A stretch of 64,000 nt of DNA from positions 19,392,062-19,456,061 of the forward strand of contig OU612074.1 of assembly GCA_914767715.1 (NCBI GenBank), read 5' to 3'. Numbering within the stretch: the first letter of the stretch is position 1; the number at the start of each line of letters is the position of its first letter. The position numbers and the translations under genes were made by a program. The notes under the pieces are model-generated. The model was not told the origin of the DNA and made no database searches. It saw only the letters and a program-made list of their open reading frames with translations. Origin of the DNA: Membranipora membranacea. Lineage: Eukaryota; Bryozoa; Gymnolaemata; Cheilostomatida; Membraniporidae. Of the stretch, positions 4,042-41,796 are shown piece after piece.

Positions 4042-4668
4042 TTAAGTCCTGTATGATGATTTATGTGTGTCTGTACTTGCAGATAGCTGAAGATATTCTT
4101 TCGCTGCTCTTACAGCATCGTCTAATGTTGGTGTTCGTACTGCAAGTAGATGTCTCTGCAGCTCTTTGTTGTTTAAAGAGGACATGAATTCGTCTAGTGC
4201 CATTTCTTTCAAGAATTGTGGCGACATATCTGGATACGCAACATCCACCAAGCTTTCAATCAAAGACGCATGTTCCTGTAGATTAGTTTTATATTCTTTT
4301 GTAAGGCTAGCCAGTTTTGACCTAGCCTCCCTTTTGCTCATTCCAAACCTGGAGCGTAAGGCGTTGATAATTAATTCCGTACTTTGGTATTTTCCACAAT
4401 CCAAAGCTGCTCCTTGTAAAGCCTGTCGTAGATGAATGACAGCTGCTTCTTCATTCCAGTTGCTAGCTCTTGCAACGTCAGTAAATTGCTGTATGAAATA
4501 TTCAACGTTTGAATGGCCCTCATACTTAGGCGCTTTAAAATTTCCATCTCTCTCAGTTTGTGGAGGAAGCCTCTCCAAAATTCTCTCCATGACAGCAGAA
4601 AGTTTATCAATGTGTGCTCCTTCTGAGAGTGCGTCTCCTGCTGCACTTTGGCTCCTTGTGGTTGTCAT
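4042..4668 (-). CDS. Retrotransposon Gag capsid-like protein
   Basis: This 208-codon frame starts at ATG 4668; the frame is open a little further upstream but without another ATG. It matches the capsid part of Gypsy-type Gag proteins: F(K)APKYEGHSNVEYFIQQFTDVA, then LRQALQGAALDCG, FGMSKREARSKLASL and the ending LQRHLLAVRTPTLDDAVRAA, all typical of the retrotransposon gag domain. There is no CCHC zinc knuckle: the frame stops shortly after the capsid domain and about 20 bases before the polypurine tract. The product could assemble particles but cannot copy itself. Confidence 0.85.
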   Translation of the reverse strand: MTTTRSQSAAGDALSEGAHIDKLSAVMERILERLPPQTERDGNFKAPKYEGHSNVEYFIQQFTDVARASNWNEEAAVIHLRQALQGAALDCGKYQSTELIINALRSRFGMSKREARSKLASLTKEYKTNLQEHASLIESLVDVAYPDMSPQFLKEMALDEFMSSLNNKELQRHLLAVRTPTLDDAVRAAKEYLQLSASTDTHKSSYRT

Positions 4669-5020
4669 ATTTGGAGTGTCAATATGTGTGTTCAATCCTT
4701 AAAACTTGATGTTGATATCACTACTGTTCTCAATTGACCTATTTGAATAACATTAGAGACACTGTGGTCAGGCGTTATTTCAAAAATCTCAGTCTCATAG
4801 GCACTTAGGGCCAGGGAACTGGAGATCAACGGTCAAATTGATAGCAAAGTGATACACTCACCAACACAATGATGTAAAGGATGGAGAATCTGTCTGTCCA
4901 ATGAGAATCGATTAAGGCTGGCTCTGTTTTCCTGTTGACGCCAGAGCTGATGATGTTTAGGATATTCTTTTTTTTTGGGTTTTTCTGTATATTTTCTAGT
5001 TTCAGGATACAAAGGCGTGT

Positions 5021-15500: not shown

Positions 15501-18500
15501 CGTAAACCCTAAAGGGCAGAGCACACTATAACGTATCGTAGGCCGTAGCACGTAATAGTTACGGCGTGCATCAGTAATCCGTAACGCACTGATGAACACA
15601 CTTCAACGTTTCCCTGCGTAATGAAATGTGTTTACAAACACAATGCATGTGCATGTTAACCAATCAAATGCTTTGTTGTGAAACACAGTGTCCTTGACAT
15701 TCTTGTGTCCTTGACATTTTCAACATTATATCATCATTTCCCACCAAAACAAAACACCATAGAAGCGATTTTACAAGAATATTAAGTTGACAGTCAGCTG
15801 ATTACAACCACATCATGAACAGAGAGAGGAGAATTAGATTACTGACACTAGGGCATCTTTATCTAAAAGCCCAGAGAAGAAATAGAGTGGGAAAGAGAAG
15901 GTACTGGGTTCATCCAGTCAACAGACAGAGACAAACATTAGGGGCATGGAACACCTGTCTGAGTGAAATGAGAAGCTCTTTCCCTGAAAAACATAGGCAA
16001 GCATTTAGAATGGACATTGAGTGCTTCAATGAGCTGCTAGGCCATGTGCAGGAAAGGATAGTGAAAAAGGACACATTCTTCAGGAAGGCTATATCTGCTG
16101 AGCAGAGACTAGGTGTGACACTGTATTATTTAGCCACTGGAGACAGCTTCTCAACTCTAGCCCTCCTATTTAGACTTGGTACTTCTACTATTAGAGAGAT
16201 TGTGTTCGAGACATCCAAGGCCCTGTGGGAGTGTCTAAGAAGCATATATTTAGCCACTCCCAGCACACCAGACGAGTGGAAAAAGATATCTCAGGAGTTC
16301 GAAAGAACATGGAACTTTCCTCACTGCCTAGGTGCTATTGACGGAAAGCACTGCTCGATACAATGCCCTCCGAACTCAGGCTCGCAATACTTCAATTATA
16401 AGAAGTTCTTCAGTGTGGTGCTGCTTGGAGTATGTGATGCCAACTACAGATTTGTATATGTGGATGTCGGCACGTCAGGAAGGTGGTCAGATGGTGGAAC
16501 ATTTGATAACTGTAGCCTCAATGAAGCTGTGAAGGGGAACACGCTGAATATACCGGCTGACATTCCGCTACCAGGTATAAACTTGTGATTTTTATGAAGA
16601 GTTTCAGTTTTGATAAAAAAGATAACATCATCCTAAGGGACGGGTAATATCACCCTTTGTAATATATATACAATGCCATGTGACCAAAAACTTGTGTTTT
16701 AGTTAGAGCTGCGTAAATTTGAATTGATGATGTACACAAAAAACTCAGAGAACTATGAGAAGCAGGCTTGTCAGGGCAGGGACCAGCCTGGTCTGATTGA
16801 GTTATCCGATAAGAGGCGATATCAGGTCTTGATTTCCGGGTAAACTTTCTGTAACAATGAGTTTGCTTTATTTTATAGGATCAGATGGTAACGAAGGATC
16901 TCCATATACCTTCATTGGTGATGAAGCATTCCCCCTGAAGACCTGGCTGATGAGACCAATTCCTGGACAGTCCGCCAAAGAGCACAATCAGAAGGTGTAC
17001 AACTATAGACTGAGTAGAGCCAGGAGAACAATAGAGAATACTTTTGGTATCATGGTGGCTCGATGGAGAGTACTCAAAAGGTATTATTATCATTATCAGG
17101 TTTTTGTTTAACTAAGCAACATCAACGAGCTTGATTTTTAAAACTTTCTATTAGATATTGCTGACTGAACTCCAAATGACTTTTTAATGTCTTTGCCTAT
17201 CCCTTGATAATAAACATAAACATACATAAACATGATAATGAAAATTGGTCCTACGGGAGAAAATTGGCCGCTAATTATGCTATTTGCAATCATTGAAAGA
17301 AGTGAAATTAGCTGCAAGCCAACAGTTATTCTGCATCATAAGCCCCCATCTCAGCTGACTGAGATTGGTGCTGACTAACATGAAGTCACCCAATACTTAG
17401 TTAAACTAAACTCTAGCTAATAATTTCTCCTAAAAAAAGGATAGTGTATATGATTATGCTCCTGCAATAACCTGTTTAGTAAGCAGATAGATTGATTATT
17501 GTCCCTCATGCTAGTATACCAAACTTTCTCATATGTTGCAGGTCTCTACACATGTCAACAGACCACGCAAACGATGTAATATTAGCCTGCTGTGTGCTGC
17601 ACAACTACATGAGGGAGAAGTCGCCACAGATGTATGCACCTCCAGGCTTCGCTGACAGCCTTGACCCTAATGGAGACGTTGTTGAGGGTGCGTGGCGAGC
17701 AGAGCATCCCTTGCAGCCCAACAATGTGAGAGGATGCCCACGTCGACCAACTCAGACAGCTACTGATGTTAGGGATAGACTGGTTAGGTACTTCAGTGGT
17801 GCTGGATCTCTGCCATGGCAAGATGCCTATGTCAGACGGACAAGATAGACATTGACACTAGTTGACTGATTTGGCAAAACGATCACATATGGAAAAGAGC
17901 TCTCAATTAAATGTTATGTAATGTAATATAGTTTGTACAAATGCTATTTTCAAAGCTAATAGAGTATTTTATCCATTTTAACTAAACGAGTTGATAGATT
18001 TCTTTCGATAAATTTTTTTATCTATATCTATTTCAAGAGGTGGCGAGGGATATATATACAATTTACAAGAAATATTGTATGATACGAAATTGAGATATTT
18101 TTGGTATGATTTAAAAGTTTAATTATTCAACGGAACAAAAAATGTTGAGATTTGGTAAAAATTTTGGTATTTTTATATATATATATTATGAAGTAAGGCT
18201 ATATACAATTACAAGAAAAAAATAGTGTATGATTAAAAATATGTATGATTAAAAATACTTGTATGGTAAGAGTATGACAATGCAAGGTATGATTTGAGGT
18301 TGAGATTGAGTTGAGATTCGGTAAGTGCAGTAATATGTAAAATGTGTAAGGTAAAGTAACTACAAAACGGACAAGTTTAAGTTGATTGACAGCGATATGG
18401 ACATCTAAAATTGTATGTGTTAAAATATGGATATGATGAGGTTATGTTAAGAGATTTAGTGACTGCATATATAAGCTTGAGCTAGATGACTGGCTCTGGT

Positions 18501-27179: not shown

Positions 27180-27413
27180 TTATTAAATGGTTGATTAAAA
27201 TCAAGCTGTGTTATCATGCACCACATCTCGAAGCATGGGCGGTGAAATATTAGTTACCTTAGGGGCTAGGCAGCAATCAGCTCTCTGTTTACAGGCAGAT
27301 TGGAGCTCACCAGGGGGCAGTAGTTGATGGACTGCAGTGGGATTCGAACCCACTGGTCTTCAACATTTGCACGCTGAAGGAATGGCGCCCTCACCAACTG
27401 AGCCACCTCCTAC
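27180..27413 (-). repeat. tRNA-derived SINE, family 1, copy A
   Basis: On the minus strand it starts GGAGTAGGAGGTGGCTCAG (A-box region) and has a B box, GGGTTCGAATCCCACTG. A body follows that ends near GATGTGGTGCATGATAACAC. Other copies are at 28632-28893 (-) and 36802-37034 (+). Confidence 0.8.
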
Positions 27414-27760
27414 TCCTAAAATATTATGAGGAATAAAATCCTGGGGGAATAACTTTTCGTCAATTGCAAACTGTTATCATTCGCCTGTTGCCGCTTAGAA
27501 GTAAAGGTGGCAGTTAGTAATTATAACAGGTCACAGTTTGACTGTGGTCTTTTGGACAATTATATAGTTTCCAGTCACACACATGAGTTATGGAATGACT
27601 ACTTGAAGGTTCTATTTCAGTATTCATTGCCTTAGGCCTACTGTGTGTGGATATACAGTGAAAAATGTGAGAATGGGTAACACAATCCTTACTTTGTTTG
27701 TTTTGACCCCATCTATTCTTCTGTTGATGTGTAATAACATATATGTTTAATCTAAATCAC

Positions 27761-27856
27761 GTTTGATCCATTTTGCCCGCATTGGAATTGCCCCCCTCAA
27801 CTGACACACCGAAGAGGGGGTTGGGGCAATTTCAATGCGGGCAAAATGGATCAAAC
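27761..27856. repeat. Fold-back element in the upstream duplication copy
   Basis: Arms starting GTTTGATCCATTTTGCCCGC fold on themselves around a loop near AACTGACACACCGAA. The same insertion is in the other duplicate at 29225-29337, so it predates the tandem duplication. Confidence 0.8.
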
Positions 27857-28631
27857 TTGATCAAGATTTGATAACAGTTGCGCTATTGTTATCAAGTTAT
27901 CATTCAACTCTATGGAACTGTTTTTTTGCAGTAAGATAGCCAGACTAAATCAGACTGAATCAGACAGGACCATTGGAACTTCAACATCCCCAGGCCCAGC
28001 CTCAACCAATAAGTAAGAACAATATATACATTGGCATCACATAACCTACCCTGTGCTATATAGTGTAACCGGTAACACATGCAGAAAATTGAAACGATTT
28101 GAATGTGACTATGTGCCGTCCATTAACAGTGACTAGCACACAAAGACAGATTATTCTATGACTCACTATTGAGGGGAATTTGTGGGTGGGGAAACCCATG
28201 ACTTTGATACAACCAATAAAAACTGGGAAAAACCACTGGTAGCCTGTGAGCCTAGCATAAAAAAATAAATCTATATTGGTGATTGTTGTTTTCATTGGCC
28301 AAAATGATAACAAGGAAGTGAAGCTATGTGTTTTTCGGCGAAGACTTGTAATAGGTTATTTTTAGTTCATTGCTATATTGGCTGGCCAGGAAGGCAGTTA
28401 TCTACACTGAAGAAAACTTTTCCGATGTGTGACAGGACAAAATAGATTTTGGTGAGTTCTCTGACAATCTGGCAATGAATTAGCAATGCAGAATCTTTCA
28501 TGACAATGGGTATTTAGCTTTGACTTATTTTCTCTCCAGTCTACTAAATTGTCTCCATACTTATCATTGACTATCGATACTCACCTTAATATTACCAAGA
28601 CAGTGTGTAGGGTTCAATAATAAACTCAATA

Positions 28632-28893
28632 CGCGCCTGTACTAAATGGTAGATTAAAATCAAGTTGTCTTATCACACGCCACATCTCAAAACAAGGGCG
28701 AAATATTAGTTGCCTTAGTGGCTAGGTCGCAATATCTGTGCCAGGTTGCTCTCTGTTTGCAGGCAGGTGGGAACACACCTGGAGGCAGTAGGCGATAGAC
28801 TGCGATGGGGCTCGAACCCATGATCTTCAACATTTGCATGCTAAAGGAACAGCGCTCTAACCAACACAACAGAGCCACCTCCTACTCCTAAAA
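28632..28893 (-). repeat. tRNA-derived SINE, family 1, copy B
   Basis: Same family as 27180-27413, more diverged (B box GGGTTCGAGCCCCATCG on the minus strand). Part of the tandem duplication. Confidence 0.75.
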
Positions 28894-29224
28894 AAAATTA
28901 TGAGGAATAAATCCTGGGTGATAACTTTTAGTCAGTCGAAAAATGTTATCATTCGTGAGAGCCTGTTGCCGTTTAGTAGTAAAGGTGGCAGTCAGTTACA
29001 ACAGGTCACAGTTTGATTGGAGTCTTTTTGACAAATACATATTTAACAGTCACATGCATGACTTTTGGAATGACTACTTGACGCTTCCATTTCAGTATTC
29101 ATTGCCTACTGTATGCGGATATACAGTGTAAAAATGTAAGAATGGGTAATGCAATCCATACTTTGTTTGTTTTGACCCCCATGTATTCTTCTGTTGATGT
29201 GTAATAGCATATAGATTTAATCTA

Positions 29225-29337
29225 GATCAAGTTTGATCCATTTTACACGTATTGGAATTTCCGCCCTCTACTGACACACCGAAGAGAGGAATGGGGCAAT
29301 TAAATTCCAATGCGGGCAAAATGGATCAAACTTGATC
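29225..29337. repeat. Fold-back element in the downstream duplication copy
   Basis: Starts GATCAAGTTTGATCC and ends with its complement; paralogous to 27761-27856. It lies about 65 bases upstream of the first-coding-exon acceptor. Confidence 0.8.
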
Positions 29338-29431
29338 AAGATTTGAACAGTTGCGCTATTGTTATCAAGTTATCATTCAACTCTATGGAACTGTTTTTTG
29401 CAGTAAGATAGCCAACACCGCAAGAATTAAG

Positions 29432-32400
29432 ATGAATCAGACAGGACCATTGGAACTTCAACATCCCCAGGCCCAGGCCCAGCCTCAACCAATAAGTAAG
29501 AACAATATACATTGGCATCACATAACCTACCCTGTGCTATATAGTGTAACCGGTAACACATGCAGAAAATTGAAACGATTTGAATGTGACTATGTGCCGT
29601 CCATTAACAGTGACTAGCACACAAAGACAGATTATTCTATGACTCACTATTGAGGGGAATTTGTGGAAAAACAGCTAAAACTCACTACAAGTGGTCCCAG
29701 CAGTGGGCCATGTAACGCCAATAAACCTAACACGTACGCTGCGTTTCATCGGTTGGTGATGGTAGAGTGGATTGTGCTGTAGGATGAGAGAACACTACTC
29801 CAAGTTTTTGTTTTTTGGAGATTGTCACCTGACGCTTGCTATTTACTGCCAGGCGATTGGTGCCACAGGAGTTGTGGGTTCGAGCCCCACTGGAGGAGCT
29901 CACAGAGATTGATTGTTCCAGCCCCCAGCAACCTAATGTGTATACATCTCCTTTCTAATGGTATCAAATCGCCTATATTATGGTACCTGTATAATTGTAC
30001 ACATACACCTCATAATAATATGCATACATCTAAAGGTGTAAAACATGATAGTTTTATGGACGTTTTGAAATTGAATTTTACTATTTTCTATTTTTAAATT
30101 GAGACTAGTCGGAAGTTTTATCTCATAAGTATAAGTCTCTCACTAATAATGCAAAAATGTTAGGGAGGGGGAGAAGCCTAGATACTTCAATCGATAAGCT
30201 CATACTTTGGATTTCATCTGTTGTATTTTCTTATTTTTGCAGTGCTTCTGCAACCCCCGGCAACAACTTCGTCTGAAATGGATTCTAATTCACAATATGA
30301 AAGTAAGTTAATTATCTTCAGGCTCACTTTCTACATTGACATCTTTATTGTCTTTGATTGTCTTTATGCATCACACTCCACTGCTCTTCCATAATTCGAA
30401 TATTAACTGGTTACTTACCCTTGCAGTGTCACATCAAATTCCCCCCTCGTGAGAGTGGTGACCTAGACAGTGGTGACTTAGTTGTGCTTAAATAATTTGA
30501 ATAAGTCTATCGTCACCACGCTCAGGGCTTTGACATAATTTGAATCAAATCCAATTATGTACAGCCAATATTTTAATTTGGCTTGACTGTAATGAAACAA
30601 AACAATCTGAACTCCCTCCTTCAATGGAAATTTTGGAAGCATAAGCGCCACCTATTCTATAACCCAGCCAACGTTACTGCCACAATATTAATACTCATTA
30701 ATTATTTTCTTTTTATACACCCTCACCTATACTAAACACATTCCTTTATCTGAAACCTCCCTGTTTTTCAACAGTATAGATTAACATTTGATTGTCCTTA
30801 TCCTCTATCTCAACACATGATTATTAATTAACCATGGTCACATAAATAACACACACATTTCACAACATTGATGCACAAATGGCTGAAAATTGAAGTCAAA
30901 GTTGTCATTACCTAAATTTTTTGGATATCTTTTGTCTATAACATGTATTTCCTTGACATTCGCAACAAGCAAACAACGAACAAAAATGGGAGTAAAAGTT
31001 TACCATCTTACATACGGGAGTTTTGTTTGGATACATCAATTGCATTTGTCCTTTACTTACTACCTTTTGGTCTTGTAAGATAATGTTATTTTTTTGACAG
31101 CCTTATAGACAGACTCCTGTATACATTATGTGACACTGATAGGACCAAATGTTACCCGCAAATTCAAAATCAAGCCCCATTGATATCTCATGTGTGAGGT
31201 TAGTAGACATGAACCTGTGTTTAGTGACCTGTTGATCCTCCACCCTCTCTCTGCTAAAAGTAATATGTTTAATTGGCTTGTATTACAGCAGCAGGCAAGA
31301 AGGTGGGGTTGATCATGTACAATCCTATATCTCGTGATGGAGCTGTAGAAGAAGCAGACAAGCTACACTCTGGACTTGAAGCTGTAAGCTGTGAGGTCAT
31401 CAGAGGAGAATGGTCAACTATAGCCCAGCTTATTAAGCTTATGGATGAAGGAATAAAATCAGCTGAAGACTGCTGTCTGCTGATGGTGTGTATCATGTCA
31501 CACGGCAGAGCAGGACTCCTGTGCTGTGAGGGTGGGGACGACTTCATTGCTATCAATTATATACTCTTGAGGCTCAAGCTAGAGCTTCCCGCAAACATAC
31601 CACTGGTGAGTACATTGAAAATAATTTTCGGCGGAATTCACTAACAACGGTGTTAAGAAAGACATATTATTTTCCTAGATTGATTCCTGGTTTGAACACC
31701 TGAACAAGATTGGGATTTTGGGTGTTTGATAAAAATCAATATTGCCTTTGTCAGTATGAGGGATTTATTTTTATCACTTGCAAAAAATGATGCATGGTAC
31801 TTCAGTAAAAACAAAATATGGTTACAGCCTTGCAATTTATTCTGTGTGTCTGTTAAAGTGATTGACACATGTCTTTTGAAACTGTCCCAGTCTAAAAAAC
31901 AAACTTCTATAAATGGTGTGCCTTAATTGACCTGAGGGGTAACTCTCTAAATTATCATGGATAAGGTTATTTTCATTATTCTGCTAAAACAATGGATGCT
32001 TGTGATTAAAAGAAATAGAATGTGTAGGATAAAAAGCAAGAAAACCATTGGTTTCTGGGGAGTTACTGGAGCATGACCCTGAAACTCTCTCAATAGACGT
32101 GAGAGTAAAAAATCTCTATGGCATTCAGCTATGCAAGGATTGTTGGCCAAAAATATGCTGTAAGACCCCGACTAGCTGCTGCTGAAGCTTAACTTTCATG
32201 CCATATACCTTGCATCAAATATGCCAAAAAAACTCAGCTTTTGTTGTAAGGTGGTGCTAATACAATCCTGTCAGCAGTCTCAGGGTGTACTAGGTAATCC
32301 CGATTATCCTGATGATTGTGATGCGTTGGCTGTGGCACAGTCCCGAGGTGGTGACTCACACATTGTCCTGGACAGAACACACACCCTACTTCTCTTAGCC

Positions 32401-35400
32401 ACAATGAGAGATGGATTTGCTAAGCGAGGTACATACACTGATGCCATAGCTCAGCAGTTCAAGCAGGCAAATGGGAAGTCAGATATACTTGATATCCACA
32501 CTAAAGCAGTCCGGAAAATGGAAGAACTTAATGAAAGAACTAACTATCAGACCCCAGAATTAAGGACCACATTGAAGATGCGTCTCATTCTTTCAGGTTA
32601 TATTCTTTAGTAATAATTGTGAGCATTGCCATGTTGATAAAGCTGAAATCTCAGTTAATCTCTTTGTAATGAATAGCGGGCTATCTAATTAGCGTCATCG
32701 ACCCATTCTTTTTTGGAAATGGTGAGATGGCGCAATCGGTTTGCGCACTTGCTATTCACTGCCAGGCGATTAGTGCCGCAGGAGTTGTGGGTTCGAGTCC
32801 CACTGGGGGAGCTTTCATTGCTGATTGTTCCAACCCCCAGCACCCTTGGGTATATCTCTCCTTTGTGTGTAATGTGCTGATCTTTTGACAACATTATAAT
32901 ACCACACCATTGAATTCCATATCTGGAATAGCATCATTAGCTTTCTTTTGCAAAACAAAGGGCTTGCAAAAATAGCCAGTCCCTAGTGGCAATCTAGAAA
33001 TGCCCTAATCATCGACACTGTAGCATTCTGCGCATGCTCAGCTCTGGGCATGAGCTGATCTCTGCAAAATTGAGTCTCGGAATTCCGAAGCCATCTGATT
33101 GGCTACCTGCTCTGGTGACATACTCCCCAAAGCGTGTGGATTTGTTACTGATAGTTATCCTCTCTTGTCATTATTAGCTGATTTTGATCGACAGTGTGTG
33201 CAGGGGATATCCCATTTCCCCTTTCAAAAGTTGCAATCAGAACCCAAACTAAACTCATTGTTCTTGCACATGCGCGAATTCAAGTCACGCATGATGCATG
33301 CCTAGCCTTACGACATCTGCTTTGTGGTAATGATACCCTAGTTTATCAGTGATCTACATGCCCAGTCAGATCACGAGAGTCAGTATGACACTGTAGGGGT
33401 ATAATTACTGTTTGCAACATTGTAAACAAGACAATTTCTCAGGCTAATTATTCATGCTCCTAGGGACAGCCAATCAGATAACAGTCAGATGGGTCCATGT
33501 GTTTAGTGTCCTAACCGTATAACGCTATGATACTATTTCCATTCTAAGAGAAGAATCTAATTCAGTGTACCACACTCATACAATAATAATACGAATAAGT
33601 TTGATAATAGTGCAGGCCAGCAGCATATCATTTGAACAGGAGTTACGGGAGTTAAGACAAATTGGAGCATCTTTATATTTGGGCTTGACTCACTACTGAA
33701 TCACCAAGGGAAAGTTTTAGCAGAAAAAACTCATTTCATCGATTTTCTACTCATGGCCCACTTATAAGCCTATATCCTGCTTAATAGAATTCACAGTTTC
33801 ACATTCCAGCCTCATCATGTGATCATAAACGTTTCCTTTTTCTAGTCCCTCAACTGATGTTTGTTAAGAAATTGGGAGATGGTGCATATGGAATAGTTCA
33901 TCTGTATCGGAACCCTGAAACCTCTGAGCTGTTGGCAGTCAAGCAGCTCAGGCAAGGAAGTCGAGATCAATCGCAGGTGCCTGGATTGAACTCACAATAA
34001 ATAAGTGCCAATTTATATGCACTATACTCATCCAACGCATCTTGTACTATATCATTTATGCTTGTGCTTGAATTGCTACATTATTTTTGTTGATATTATT
34101 GCTCAGTAATTTCATTATGTAGAAGTTTTAGTACGTCAACTGCCTTTTGCTACAGGTGGATTCTCTTCACCATGAGATAAAAGTTCTAAGCCAGATGGAA
34201 CACCAGAGAGTTGTCAGGTATATCAGGATGAACGATGATCCACTGAGCATTATAATGGAGTTTGTCCCTGGTGGTTCACTTGAGGATAAACTCAAGATCG
34301 GACCTCTAAACGAAGCAGATACCAGACATTACACAAACCAGATCTTAGAAGGCTTGACATACCTTCACCAAAAAAATATTATACACCGAGATTTGAAAGG
34401 TAATGTGACTGCTTGTATTGAGTTCAAATAAAGTTTACAACTCGAAGTCATGATCATTTACAACTGAATCATACATAAAGGTTGCCTCTGTTGAACCCAG
34501 CTGCAACATGAGTAATTGAATTGGCAAATTATTCAAGAGGTTCACCCTTTTGTCAGCTGTAATTTAACAACTCGGGACTTGTTTGACACGCTCTTCATGA
34601 CAGAGTCCAGTACTTTTGCATTAAAGATTTTAAGATTGTCACATTGCTGAAGTTTGCTGTTTACAGAGCTTGTAATGCCATGATATAGCTAGCTATCTCA
34701 CTAACTAGATGATGGTTCAAATATCAAGGGGTATTTGTTTGAGCATCTGGCCCCTCTCTAAAATGGCACTGGACAGCTGAGTCTGTGAATTTAATGCTAT
34801 TAAGTTGTTCGTATTTTTGGTTTTTTTTACTCACCAAATTGATTCATAATTCCAGTTATAGGGGATGTCTAATAGTTAGATAAACAGAGCGAAAAGTGAA
34901 ATCTGCTCTCATATAGTCTATGAAAAACTTTATAAAAGAATAATATCATTCCTGGAAATGTTCAGATTTTTTGCAGAGCATCTGTGAGTATGCAGGAATA
35001 TAATATGATGCAGAAGCGGATCGTAATATTTCTACTATTCTGACTATCATGATCAATTCTTGTGCATGTATGCACTATCCATTGTTGTATTTTTCTATAT
35101 TTAAGCTGCCAATGTGCTCTACACTGAGAATGATGAAATAAAACTGGCTGACTTTGGAGTGAGTAAACTGCTGAAAAATTGCACCATGGTAAACAGTCGC
35201 ATTCCTCAAAAAGAAGGAGTAGCAGGTAGCGCTCTTGCAAATACTTGTATTGGATCGGTGTACTGGATGGCACCTGAAGTTGTTCGCCAAGACCTTTATG
35301 GACGACGTGCTGATATATGGTGAGCAGTATCAGCTTTGGACCTACCGATATATGCGGGGAGCATCATTTCCAAAGCATAATTGGACCGTTGAATACTCCC

Positions 35401-36303
35401 TGAAGAGGTTGTAAATGTATTGACCTCTGGGAGTGATTTCAGCTGCCTGTAAGGCATTCCAGATTATTCATTTGTTCTTTCTGAAAAGCCATATAACTTT
35501 CAATTTTTCAAGTTTGCGAAACAAAATTTCATTGTGGAGCTCCATGAGAGCACTAGCTTATGTATTGCGTAGATGATGTTGCATACAAAGTTTGATGGAA
35601 TTTAAAAGTATATACTAGAAAATACTGCACCTTTATTTCTCACTCTTTGGACAGAGACAGACTTTCAATGTGCTGTGCAGTTTATGGAAGACTGAGGTCT
35701 GTTAGGGTTCCACATCATCTTTTATTGGTATATTTGTTGGTGTGATGGTTAGGCAAGTTGCAAGTTGAAATTTATCCAGACATACTGCCAATCGAAAGAA
35801 TAATACCCACGAAACTGGTGACTATTATGTAATAAAAACATATTTCCTGCCGATGTTGTACCAATTCAACTTAAGGATAATCCCAGCTGATAAGCCTATA
35901 GGATAGAAATGGAGAACAAGTAAAAGGCTCACACCGCATGATTTTTCAGTTTTAACCTTATACTGATTTCGGAAACAATCAACAAGTGTTAAAGGATTTT
36001 TAGAGATGTTTCAATTTTCTTTTTATTTTCAGGAGTTTGGCATGTACTGTTGTGGAGATGCTAACTTGTAAGCATCCCTGGAGTCGCTTTGAGCAAGCTG
36101 CAGCTATCTTCAAGATCGGAAACTATGCGGGAAACTTGGACCCTCTACTTCCCGATGATCATAGTATCAGTAAAGAAGCCCTCGCTTTTTTGAAGAGGCT
36201 TTTTGTTTCATATGAAGAGCGCCCCTACGCATGGGGTTTGAAGGATGATTTGTGGTTGAAACCTACATCAACTCCTGCTGGTGGTGGTGCTTCTAAACCT
36301 TAA
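29432..36303 (+). CDS. Caspase - MEKK2/3-like MAP3K fusion protein
   Basis: Eight coding exons, 29432-29495, 30243-30302, 31289-31605, 32251-32596, 33846-33976, 34156-34399, 35106-35319 and 36033-36303, join in frame to give 548 aa. Residues 1-42 are Gln/Pro-rich; no CARD or DED. Caspase domain, 43-262: SRDG (R57), the histidine in IMSHG (H113), Q152-S153-C154 in place of QAC, and a p10 part LLLLATMRDGFAKRG (R206) ending TPELRTTLKMRLIL. The Arg/Gln residues that bind P1 Asp in caspases are present. Kinase domain, from about 266: GDGAYG (273-278), AVK (K295), HRDLK (383-387), DFG (403-405), APE (443-445), and ADIWSLACTVVEMLT, which closely matches MEKK2/3. Cytosolic signalling is expected. The start is the first ATG in its exon; the exon before is probably non-coding. 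A poly(A) signal is at 36555-36560. Two separate genes cannot be excluded without RNA, but the donor at 32597 and acceptor at 33845 agree in phase and no stop or start separates the domains in the spliced model. Confidence 0.85.
29756..29945 (+). repeat. tRNA-derived SINE, family 2, copy A
   Basis: It has a B box, GTGGGTTCGAGCCCCACTGG, after GCTATTTACTGCCAGGCGAT and a body with GATTGTTCCAGCCCCCAGCA. The A-box part seems split by a short insertion. In the first coding intron of the caspase-kinase gene; relatives at 32710-32860 and 48368-48512 (-). Confidence 0.7.
32710..32860 (+). repeat. tRNA-derived SINE, family 2, copy B
   Basis: GGTGAGATGGCGCAATCGG (A-box region) and GTGGGTTCGAGTCCCACTGG (B box) followed by GATTGTTCCAACCCCCAGCA. 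It lies in the intron between the caspase and kinase exons. Confidence 0.8.
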
Positions 36304-36554: not shown

Positions 36555-36560
36555 AATAAA
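36555..36560 (+). terminator. Polyadenylation signal of the caspase-kinase gene
   Basis: AATAAA about 250 bases after the stop at 36301-36303. Confidence 0.55.
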
Positions 36561-36801: not shown

Positions 36802-37034
36802 AAGGAGTAGGAGGTGGCTCAGATGGTCAGAGCGCCGTTCCTTTAGCATGCAAATGTTGAAAGTCGCGTGGTCGAATCCCACTGCAGTCCATGGACTACT
36901 GGGGTTTGGTTGGCCCCAAGGTGTGCTCCAGCCTGCCTGCAAACAGTAGGCAACCTGGCTACTATTACTACTACTATTTTGCCGCCCATTCTTCACGATG
37001 TGGCGTGTGATAAGACAATGACTTTAATCAACTT
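36802..37034 (+). repeat. tRNA-derived SINE, family 1, copy C
   Basis: GGAGTAGGAGGTGGCTCAGA, B box GGTCGAATCCCACTGC, and a tail GATGTGGCGTGTGATAAGAC. Same order as the two minus-strand copies near 27-29 kb. Confidence 0.8.
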
Positions 37035-40216: not shown

Positions 40217-41796
40217 TCACCAGACATGATCATCGAGATTGAGACGATTGATGCCATCTAATAATAAACCCTCTACACCTGCATGCATCATCGTGTACCA
40301 AGCCGGGGGAGGAGGCATTATAAAATCTGCTGAGAAGATGTTTTGAAAATCAATTGCAGCAAAATCATCAGCCTGTTTTCTGGTATGCTGGTAATTATGT
40401 CTTTTAAGACTACCCACAGGTGATCCACTGTAAGTCTCATAAGTATAAAATGGTATTTGCTCAGTGTCAGGTCTGGCCATGTTGAGAAGGTCAACAAGAG
40501 TCACCCACAACTCATAATCAAAGGCTCTAACTAAGATTTGATTGTGAAATAGCATATTTAGCATTCGGGTATTTTCACTAAATTCTACATAGATATTCTT
40601 GTAGAAATACCTTTTCTTACAGACAGGACAGCTAATCCTGTAACATTTGTACGGGCCTGCTGCTATAATTTCCATGTCCAAATTTTGATTGAACAGTTTT
40701 CGAATATTTGTCCTAAACTCAATAAGAGCCTTTGAACATGGGCTACATGGAGAATAGCTGGTATAAACTCTTAATTTGCCAAGAAATTGGGTATTGTGTA
40801 ATAGATTATACGAATGCTGAATTAGATAAAGTTCAGCGTGTGTCCCTTCTTCTGTGTTTCTGGCTGGGCGGTTACGAAAGACTTCAGCCAAACCATTATT
40901 TACCTGGACCACACACCAAGTTCTGTTTGGCCATCGGGCCCCGTGTGTTCCACTTTTCAGGAAGTCTTCGAAGATGGAGTTAGCAGAGGCTTTGAACGCT
41001 AAAAACAAATGATAGAGAAAACAAGTATAGAAAATAGTCATAGAGGTATTCAATTTTTCAAATCCAATCAATAGCCTGAACACCACAAGACATCAAAAAA
41101 TGGTTCAGGATTGAGTTGAATTATTACTTCCCTCTGTAAACTGGTGTTACCCGGAAAAAGTTTAGTTCAGAACATTTGCAATTAAGTAAAGATGTCATGA
41201 ATCTTCCTTGTATAAGGTATTAGGTATTATGTAATATGTATTAGGTATCGAGTATTAGGTATTAGGGTATTAAGATATTAGGGTATTTCTCAAGGAGTTA
41301 TACTTTCTGCAAAATGTAGTGACAATCTGACCAAAAAATAGGGAGCAAATTTTTTTTTCTCAAATTACAGTCAATGGTAGCTAGTGCACATCAATGTTTC
41401 ATCAATATCGCCAACATATTATCTGCCATAAATGCAATAATGCTCACTGTTTTACTTATTGGAGGGGATCTAAAGTGTGAGGTAATTGGCGGTAAAATGT
41501 CTAGGAGTTGAAACACTCTTCTCATTCTTCAATATATGACATATGATCAAAAGAGACTACATGACCCAATCAACATGTCCCAAATCAAAAAATAGAAAGT
41601 TAGCAATATTTAAATTCCCAGATTGAGGTGAACAAAATTGATAGGGTGTATGCACATTAAATAAGGCAGCAAGTTTTTGTTATATTTTACGCATATTAAT
41701 ATATTTCAACATATAATATATTGACTCACCATATGGTGGAAACTGGGGCTGGAATACCCATGCTGGTACACTCATTATTGTTGAGGTGCTGATCAT
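40217..41796 (-). CDS. AID/APOBEC-like cytidine deaminase
   Basis: Coding exons 41796-41730 and 40998-40217 join in phase 1 to give 282 aa. The second-exon acceptor (TTTTTAG) was preferred to the open frame that runs back through it. The zinc-dependent deaminase core is visible: H76-A77-E78 in EEGTHAELYLIQ, then VYTSYSPCSPCSKALIEF with C107 and C110. H, C and C would bind zinc and E78 act as proton shuttle, exactly the H-[A/V]-E...SPCxxC pattern of AID/APOBEC proteins. Following the core are a strand MEIIAAGPYK and an unusual Cys cluster (C141, C146, C149). The C-terminal ~100 residues are helical or disordered, with a PPPPAW patch, and lack clear relatives that I recognise. Expected chemistry is cytosine to uracil in single-stranded DNA or RNA. 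No signal peptide, so nuclear or cytosolic. Poly(A) signal at 40059-40064. Confidence 0.85.
41216..41288. repeat. Short tandem repeat, TATTAGG-type
   Basis: Imperfect units of TATTAGGTATTA and TATTAGGGTA in the deaminase gene's only coding intron (40999-41729). Confidence 0.65.

What the first reader, a model, noticed from the sequence alone, without database searches (positions are those of the whole stretch)
29432..36303. One gene model joins an intact caspase domain to an intact MEKK2/3-like kinase domain
Seen: a caspase domain with R57, H113, Q152, C154 and R206, then a kinase with G-loop, K295, HRD, DFG and APE motifs. They are joined by a splice whose phase agrees (codon G|TC across 32596/33846), with no stop, promoter or polyadenylation signal recognised between them. 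Known: caspases are normally fused to CARD, DED or death domains, and MEKK2/3 kinases to PB1 domains. Inference: a single polypeptide may couple proteolytic activation, by cutting near the p10-kinase linker, to MAP-kinase stress signalling. The kinase might be released or switched by self-cleavage. I know of no standard family with this architecture.
Basis: partly seen in the sequence, partly recalled or inferred. Interest (0 to 1): 0.88.

Follow-up and report, generated by a model that had tools for sequence, protein, structure and literature searches.

The report
Possible caspase–MAP3K fusion gene
In an unidentified animal-like genome, exons for a cell-death protease domain sit directly before exons for a stress-signalling kinase in a way that can be read as one protein, but the splice that would join them is weak and two neighbouring genes remain possible until RNA is sequenced.

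Summary
The exons and both domains are real. The eight-exon model (29432-36303) is in frame with GT-AG introns and encodes 548 aa. Pfam finds Peptidase_C14 (E 5e-12) and Pkinase (E 2e-58), and each of the six domain exons matches its own part of the right profile. The nearest solved structures are caspase-8 and MAP3K2.
The weak point is the joint. Its donor (32597, CAG|GTTATA) is the weakest of seven (78th percentile of all GTs; the others 93 or above). If it is unused, exon 4 reads SGYIL-stop, about where a caspase ends. Against two genes: no AATAAA/ATTAAA lies between the domains, three acceptor-like sites precede the kinase exon, the kinase's own ATG is poorly placed, and the gap is of intron size. 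I put one gene at about 0.57, two genes at 0.36 (judgement).
Release of the kinase by self-cutting is not supported: no Asp lies between D228 and D274. If fused, caspase-type dimerisation bringing two MAP3K domains together is likelier. My database and paper searches, all limited, showed no caspase-kinase animal protein; other caspase fusions are known.

The parts
29432..29495 (+). Exon 1, proposed start codon, P/Q-rich N-terminus
   Evidence: ORF and donor TAA|GTAAGA, 92.8 pct; A at -3 of the ATG; weakly supported, no domain
30243..30302 (+). Exon 2, N-terminal low-complexity segment
   Evidence: Acceptor 98.5 pct and donor 98.8 pct; no domain
31289..31605 (+). Exon 3, caspase large-subunit (p20) first half with R57 and H113
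   Evidence: Its ORF alone matches Peptidase_C14 profile 18-88, E 0.003, 17.7 bits (below the 21.4 cut-off when alone)
32251..32596 (+). Exon 4, caspase active site (Q152, C154), short linker and p10 with R206
   Evidence: Its ORF alone matches Peptidase_C14 profile 115-229, E 2.6e-07, above the cut-off
32597..33845 (+). Proposed intron joining caspase to kinase, or intergenic gap in the two-gene reading
   Evidence: Donor CAG|GTTATA at the 78th percentile; acceptor at 33846 at the 90th; second in-phase acceptor at 33810 at the 95th
32597..32610 (+). Read-through tail (GYIL, then TAG) if the donor is not used
   Evidence: Sequence, ORF 32176-32610
33846..33976 (+). Exon 5, kinase glycine loop and K295
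   Evidence: ORF 33788-33997 matches Pkinase profile 3-40, E 0.00095, below the cut-off when alone
34156..34399 (+). Exon 6, kinase alpha-C to HRD
   Evidence: Pkinase profile 44-126, E 1.4e-20
35106..35319 (+). Exon 7, DFG, long activation segment, APE
   Evidence: Pkinase profile 127-181, E 2.3e-12
36033..36303 (+). Exon 8, kinase C-lobe and stop codon
   Evidence: Pkinase profile 182-252, E 0.0091, below the cut-off when alone; AATAAA at 36555, 252 nt downstream
27211..28185 (+). Diverged duplicate of the exon-1 region (28670-29666), lacking the ATG
   Evidence: 867 of 1019 aligned columns identical, 66 gap columns; CTG in place of ATG

Best explanation
One gene encodes a 548-residue protein: a short P/Q-rich N-terminus without a recognisable death-fold domain, a caspase-8-like peptidase domain, and, almost without linker, a complete MAP3K2/3-like kinase domain. 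Shown: the exons, both domains, the catalytic residues, and the existence of an in-frame way to join them. Inferred: that the joining splice is used, and the following mechanism. The caspase domain takes the place of the PB1 adaptor of MEKK2/3-type kinases as the assembly module. Caspase dimerisation through the last p10 strand, which runs straight into the kinase, brings two kinase domains together so that they activate each other and start a MAP-kinase response. Protease processing, if it occurs, would be at DDCD171|A between p20 and p10, stabilising the dimer while leaving the kinase attached.
For: Continuous frame over eight GT-AG exons. Both domains well above the Pfam cut-offs, each domain exon matching in order. 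His, Cys and two substrate-pocket Arg align with caspase-8; the kinase aligns with MAP3K2 at E 8.8e-57. No AATAAA/ATTAAA between the domains, while AATAAA follows the kinase stop by 252 nt. Three acceptor-like AGs in the top 10% (33788, 33810, 33846) lie within 60 nt at the kinase exon; 98 of 6370 sixty-nt windows have as many, so an intron probably ends there (33846 only just passes that threshold). Two of them keep the frame with the caspase. The kinase's first ATG (33857) has C at -3 and T at +4. None of the 6 other ORFs of at least 48 aa on the + strand in the gap matches Pfam at E<=1.
Against: The joining donor is the weakest of seven; only 588 of 20000 donors simulated from the same recalled matrix are that weak, while 436 of 4000 random in-frame stops have an equally good GT in that phase within 30 nt upstream. 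Reading through gives a stop about where caspases end. A better donor (32619, GTGAGC, 93rd percentile) lies after that stop. Lack of AATAAA/ATTAAA has a chance of 0.338 in any case. No homologue with both domains was seen. No RNA data. The active-site pentapeptide is QSCQQ, not QACxG, so protease activity is unsure.
Confidence: 0.57

Rival explanations
1. Two adjacent genes on the same strand: a short caspase without prodomain ending ...LILSGYIL-stop at 32610, and a separate MAP3K2/3-like kinase whose 5' exon or start lies in 32611-33857. The in-phase splice is a coincidence.
For: Stop four codons after the proposed donor, at about the usual length of a caspase C-terminus. The donor is weak, and a comparable chance donor occurs before 436 of 4000 random in-frame stops. 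An ATG at 33857 could start the kinase at its first beta strand. No fusion homologue seen.
Against: No AATAAA/ATTAAA in 32611-33845. The kinase ATG context is poor. No ORF of at least 48 aa with a Pfam match in the gap besides the kinase exon; shorter exons could be missed. The gap of 1249 nt, including a tRNA-like repeat, is not far above the other introns (179-986 nt) and is shorter than the 3.9 kb to the next ORF that I could assign.
Confidence: 0.36
2. One transcription unit with alternative splicing: donor 32597 gives the fusion, while read-through or the donor at 32619 gives caspase alone, so the same locus makes a free caspase and a caspase-kinase.
For: Two competing donors 22 nt apart, the stronger one after the stop.
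Against: Purely from consensus scores; no RNA. The stop would lie in a non-final exon if 32619 were used, which normally triggers decay of the transcript (recalled knowledge).
Confidence: 0.05
3. Non-functional relic or assembly artefact: a decayed or misjoined locus.
For: Diverged duplication of the exon-1 region nearby; active-site pentapeptide departs from QACxG.
Against: No frameshift or stop in either domain over eight exons; the kinase motifs looked for are all there.
Confidence: 0.02

Closest known systems
Caspase-8 (peptidase family C14A)
   Same: Best solved-structure match of the protease half (E 1.4e-4); His, Cys and two substrate-pocket Arg align
   Different: No DED/CARD/DD found; QSCQQ instead of QACQG; a gap of about four residues after the pocket Arg; kinase domain attached
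MAP3K2/MAP3K3 (MEKK2/3) kinase domain
   Same: Best solved-structure match of the kinase half is MAP3K2 (E 8.8e-57); catalytic motifs kept
   Different: No PB1 domain found; activation segment longer than in MAP3K2 (11-residue gap in the alignment); caspase domain in front
Amphioxus TNFR-caspase and LRR-caspase hybrid genes (PMC2575513, passages read)
   Same: Animal caspase catalytic domain joined to a non-standard signalling domain; TNFR-caspase confirmed by cDNA there
   Different: Partners are TNFR or LRR, not a kinase; the passage says they keep QACxG
Bacterial EACC1 two-gene systems (PMC7159879, section 33 read)
   Same: N-terminal caspase domain with a C-terminal variable effector domain (up to 50 kinds) on the same protein
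   Different: Bacterial, with a membrane partner gene; effector deployment by self-cutting proposed there, for which the joint here has no Asp
Amphimedon TRADD-N proteins (PMC8195603, section 10 read)
   Same: Animal apoptosis/immune domain shuffling in which kinase or caspase occupies a C-terminal slot
   Different: Kinase or caspase listed as alternatives after Death-like and TRADD-N domains; that section mentions no protein with both
Coral caspase-X (PMC4715348, passages read)
   Same: Lineage-specific caspase architecture
   Different: Two caspase domains, in some predictions a glycosyltransferase; 'kinase' has 0 occurrences in the main text held

Membership tests
Caspase (peptidase C14) | Profile match above the curated cut-off | tested here: met
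   PF00656 46.4 bits against 21.4, residues 56-256
Caspase (peptidase C14) | Catalytic His and Cys, two Arg of the P1-Asp pocket | tested here: met
   H113, C154, R57, R206 align with caspase-8
Caspase (peptidase C14) | Active-site pentapeptide QACxG | tested here: not met
   QSCQQ; so I file it as a C14-fold domain with the dyad, not as a proven active caspase
Caspase (peptidase C14) | Death-fold prodomain (initiator caspases only) | tested here: not met
   No Pfam match at E<=1 before residue 56; none in the 23 upstream + strand ORFs of at least 48 aa between 20902 and 29614. Short exons could be missed
Caspase (peptidase C14) | Cuts after Asp and processes its own linker | not testable with these tools
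   Possible site DDCD171|A seen by eye
MEKK2/3 (MAP3K2/3) | STE-type kinase domain closest to MAP3K2/3 | tested here: met
   Best of 2711 matched PDB sequences (60 shown) is MAP3K2, 195.8 bits; next best, MAP3K5, 138.4. No tree was built
MEKK2/3 (MAP3K2/3) | Catalytic Lys, HRD, DFG, APE | tested here: met
MEKK2/3 (MAP3K2/3) | N-terminal PB1 domain | tested here: not met
   None in the model nor in the 29 ORFs upstream and in the gap; so a MEKK2/3-like kinase domain, not a MEKK2/3 protein
Caspase-kinase fusion protein | One mRNA spanning both domains | not testable with these tools
   No RNA data; frame-compatible splice only
Caspase-kinase fusion protein | Same architecture in another species | tested here: inconclusive
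   0 of 120 listed hits carry PF00656 (120 of 6056 hits listed, 8000 candidates scored); 0 of 1645 candidates at E<=1 from the caspase part
Bacterial EACC1-caspase effector system | Partner membrane gene EACC1 next to the caspase gene | not tested
   Used only as an analogy from the paper

The most novel reading that the evidence does not exclude
An animal protein in which the caspase fold is the regulatory module of a MAP3K: dimerisation of the caspase domain switches the kinase on, so that cell-death protease assembly and stress-kinase signalling are the same molecular event, with alternative use of the weak donor deciding whether the cell makes free caspase or caspase-kinase.
Probability: 0.3. 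Interest if true: 0.75.

Novelty: new variant of a known kind. Interest (0 to 1): 0.5.

Why it matters
In well-studied animals caspases and MAP3Ks are linked through adaptors and death-fold assemblies, not in one chain (established knowledge, recalled). A natural caspase-MAP3K fusion would be a shortcut protein like the amphioxus TNFR-caspase (PMC2575513). It would let one ask directly whether the caspase fold can act as a dimerisation switch for a kinase, and whether death and stress signalling can be coupled one to one.

Tried and rejected
Looked for further copies of either domain in the window by tblastn: besides the model's own exons and the exon-1 duplicate, the best of the rest has E 1.0. 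Looked for loci encoding the caspase in viral and prokaryotic contigs: 4 and 30 pattern matches, none confirmed. Searched the large protein database three times: the caspase part within the whole model (1645 candidates, none at E<=1), the whole model (only kinase relatives among the 120 listed), and the caspase alone with its read-through tail (786 candidates, none at E<=10). Looked for a hidden death-fold or PB1 exon in 29 + strand ORFs of at least 48 aa (23 upstream, 6 in the gap): no family above its cut-off; the only weak matches are TMEM18 E 0.006, APC_u14 E 0.1 and LIF_OSM E 0.12, all upstream and far below cut-off. Ten paper searches: nine on this architecture, one on the neighbouring deaminase (47). 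None of what I saw describes a caspase-kinase animal protein, but lists were capped: 8 of 9 papers listed, 30 of 51 in 22 (the listed ones off topic), 20 of 89 in 35, 15 of 123 in 51. I opened 11 papers, by passages or sections, none in full; figures are not held. GC at third codon positions is alike in the two halves (0.420 and 0.394), which decides nothing.

Considered kinase release by self-cutting and rejected it for lack of an Asp at the joint under the 33846 acceptor; under the 33810 acceptor the extra linker ASSCDHKRFLFL has one Asp followed by His, an unlikely site (recalled preference). Considered an operon: a gap of 1.25 kb is long for that (recalled).

The splice matrices are human-like tables written from memory, so percentiles are relative guides. 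The species is unknown; 'animal' is an inference from the caspase-8-like domain and the AID/APOBEC-like ORF. The probabilities are my judgement, not a computed posterior.

Full report
What is there. Introns are 747, 986, 645, 1249, 179, 706 and 713 nt. Pfam gives Peptidase_C14 at 56-256 (E 5.1e-12, 46.4 bits, cut-off 21.4) and Pkinase at 268-522 (E 1.7e-58). Scanned singly, the ORFs of all six domain exons (3 to 8) match their own, consecutive part of the right profile; three of the six (exons 3, 5 and 8) stay below the curated cut-off when alone, as short pieces may. So the exon order does not depend on my joining them.

Protease half. The nearest solved structures are caspase-8 chains (best E 1.4e-4). 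In that alignment R57, H113, C154 and R206 fall on Arg, His, Cys and Arg of caspase-8. Departures: QSCQQ instead of QACQG and a gap of about four residues after the pocket Arg. The linker between C154 and the p10 strands holds DDCD171|A, which resembles a caspase site (by eye; positions). I would call it a C14-fold domain with an intact dyad, probably but not certainly active.

Kinase half. The best of 2711 matched PDB sequences is MAP3K2 (195.8 bits; the next, MAP3K5, 138.4). Glycine loop, AVK, HRDLK, DFG and APE are present, and the segment from DFG to APE is 43 residues, longer than in MAP3K2 by an 11-residue gap in the alignment. The Pfam match covers profile positions 3-251 of 263. There is no PB1 domain in the model or in the 29 ORFs upstream and in the gap.

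The joint. This is the crux. Scored with a human-like donor matrix (recalled), the seven donors lie at percentiles 92.8, 98.8, 100, 78.1, 97.0, 97.9 and 99.7 of all 3465 GTs in the window; the 78.1 is the one that joins caspase to kinase. In simulations from the same matrix 588 of 20000 donors are that weak, whereas 436 of 4000 random in-frame stops have a GT of the same phase and at least that score within 30 nt before them. If the donor is ignored, exon 4 reads ...LRTTLKMRLILSGYIL-stop, the TAG at 32608-32610; that is about where caspase-8 ends (alignment; the exact C-terminus of caspase-8 is recalled). A better donor, GTGAGC at 32619, lies after that stop. These points favour two genes.

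Other points favour one gene. Between 32611 and 33845 there is no AATAAA or ATTAAA (1.13 expected, chance of none 0.338 of 500 simulations), while AATAAA follows the kinase stop at 36555. At the kinase exon there are three acceptor-like AGs in the top 10% (33788, 33810, 33846; the last only just passes); 98 of 6370 sixty-nt windows have as many. So something upstream is probably spliced to the kinase, and two of these acceptors, 33810 and 33846, keep the caspase frame. This by itself would also fit a kinase gene with its own upstream exon. The kinase's first ATG, 33857, has C at -3 and T at +4, and none of the 6 other + strand ORFs of at least 48 aa in the gap matches Pfam. The gap is near intron size and includes a tRNA-like repeat, whereas the next ORF that I could assign is 3.9 kb away. 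Weighing these by judgement, I put one gene at about 0.57, two genes at 0.36.

Mechanism. There is almost no linker: the profile matches end at 256 and begin at 268, and no Asp lies between D228 and D274, the latter being in the glycine loop. A cut at D171 would leave the kinase attached to p10. From established knowledge (recalled), the last p10 strand lies at the caspase dimer interface and MAP3Ks are activated by dimerisation and trans-phosphorylation. The best mechanism is therefore that the caspase domain acts as the dimerisation module. This is inference; neither activity nor dimerisation was tested, and no structure was predicted.

Relatives and print. With the caspase part of the model, 1645 candidates were scored and none reached E 1; with the caspase alone 786 candidates, none at E 10. 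With the whole model, 6056 of 8000 scored candidates pass E 0.001; of the 120 listed none carries PF00656, and they cover 31-62% of the query. The list includes plant, fungal and tunicate proteins, so animals are at least partly represented, but the search needs shared five-residue words and is insensitive to a divergent caspase: even ordinary caspases did not come back. Viral and prokaryotic contigs gave nothing. The nine paper searches on this architecture, with capped lists, showed no caspase-kinase animal protein. Precedents for caspases joined to other domains exist: amphioxus TNFR-caspase and LRR-caspase (PMC2575513, passages), coral caspase-X (PMC4715348, passages), and bacterial EACC1 systems with a caspase followed by up to 50 kinds of effector (PMC7159879, section 33 read). 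In the sponge Amphimedon, TRADD-N proteins carry a kinase or a caspase among their C-terminal domains (PMC8195603, section 10 read). In PMC3501461, on prokaryotic caspase homologues, both occurrences of 'kinase' in the text concern another cascade (12 of 15 passages shown); I did not see its architecture figure.

Verdict. If RNA confirms the joint, it is a new domain architecture built of two known kinds of domain.

Noticed in passing
window 40220-41092, minus strand: Single ORF (291 aa from stop to stop) matching AID/APOBEC-like deaminase profiles (NAD1 E 8e-10, SNAD4 1e-9, APOBEC_N 2e-8), with HAE and PCxxC motifs and a hydrophobic N-terminus that could be a signal peptide (by eye).
   Followed up: partly
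window 15791-16585 and 16833-17108, plus strand: Two ORFs matching successive parts of DDE_Tnp_4 transposase (profile 1-69 and 76-137), probably a Harbinger-type transposon in pieces (name recalled).
   Followed up: no
window 27211-28185 and 28670-29666: Direct duplication of the exon-1 region, 85% identical overall, but with stretches of 100% (162 nt at 28024 and 29505). The upstream copy has CTG instead of ATG and an in-frame TAA just before it. The sharp change of identity suggests gene conversion or recent exchange.
   Followed up: partly
window 29835-29900 and 32748-32813: Two copies (92% over 66 nt) of a tRNA-like repeat; Rfam finds a tRNA-like match at 32727-32804 just above the cut-off (29.1 against 29 bits), ARAGORN none. 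Probably a tRNA-derived SINE.
   Followed up: no
window 27300-27417, 28665-28863 and 36803-37018: Inverted copies of another repeat (arms 78-90% complementary) flank the caspase-kinase locus on both sides.
   Followed up: no
window 29219-29343 and 27749-27868: Short inverted repeats (42-46 nt arms, 28-41 nt between) just upstream of exon 1 and of its duplicate, like a MITE.
   Followed up: no
window 4045-4698, minus strand: 218-aa ORF without a convincing Pfam match (best E 0.011, below cut-off); looks by eye like a retrotransposon capsid-type protein.
   Followed up: no
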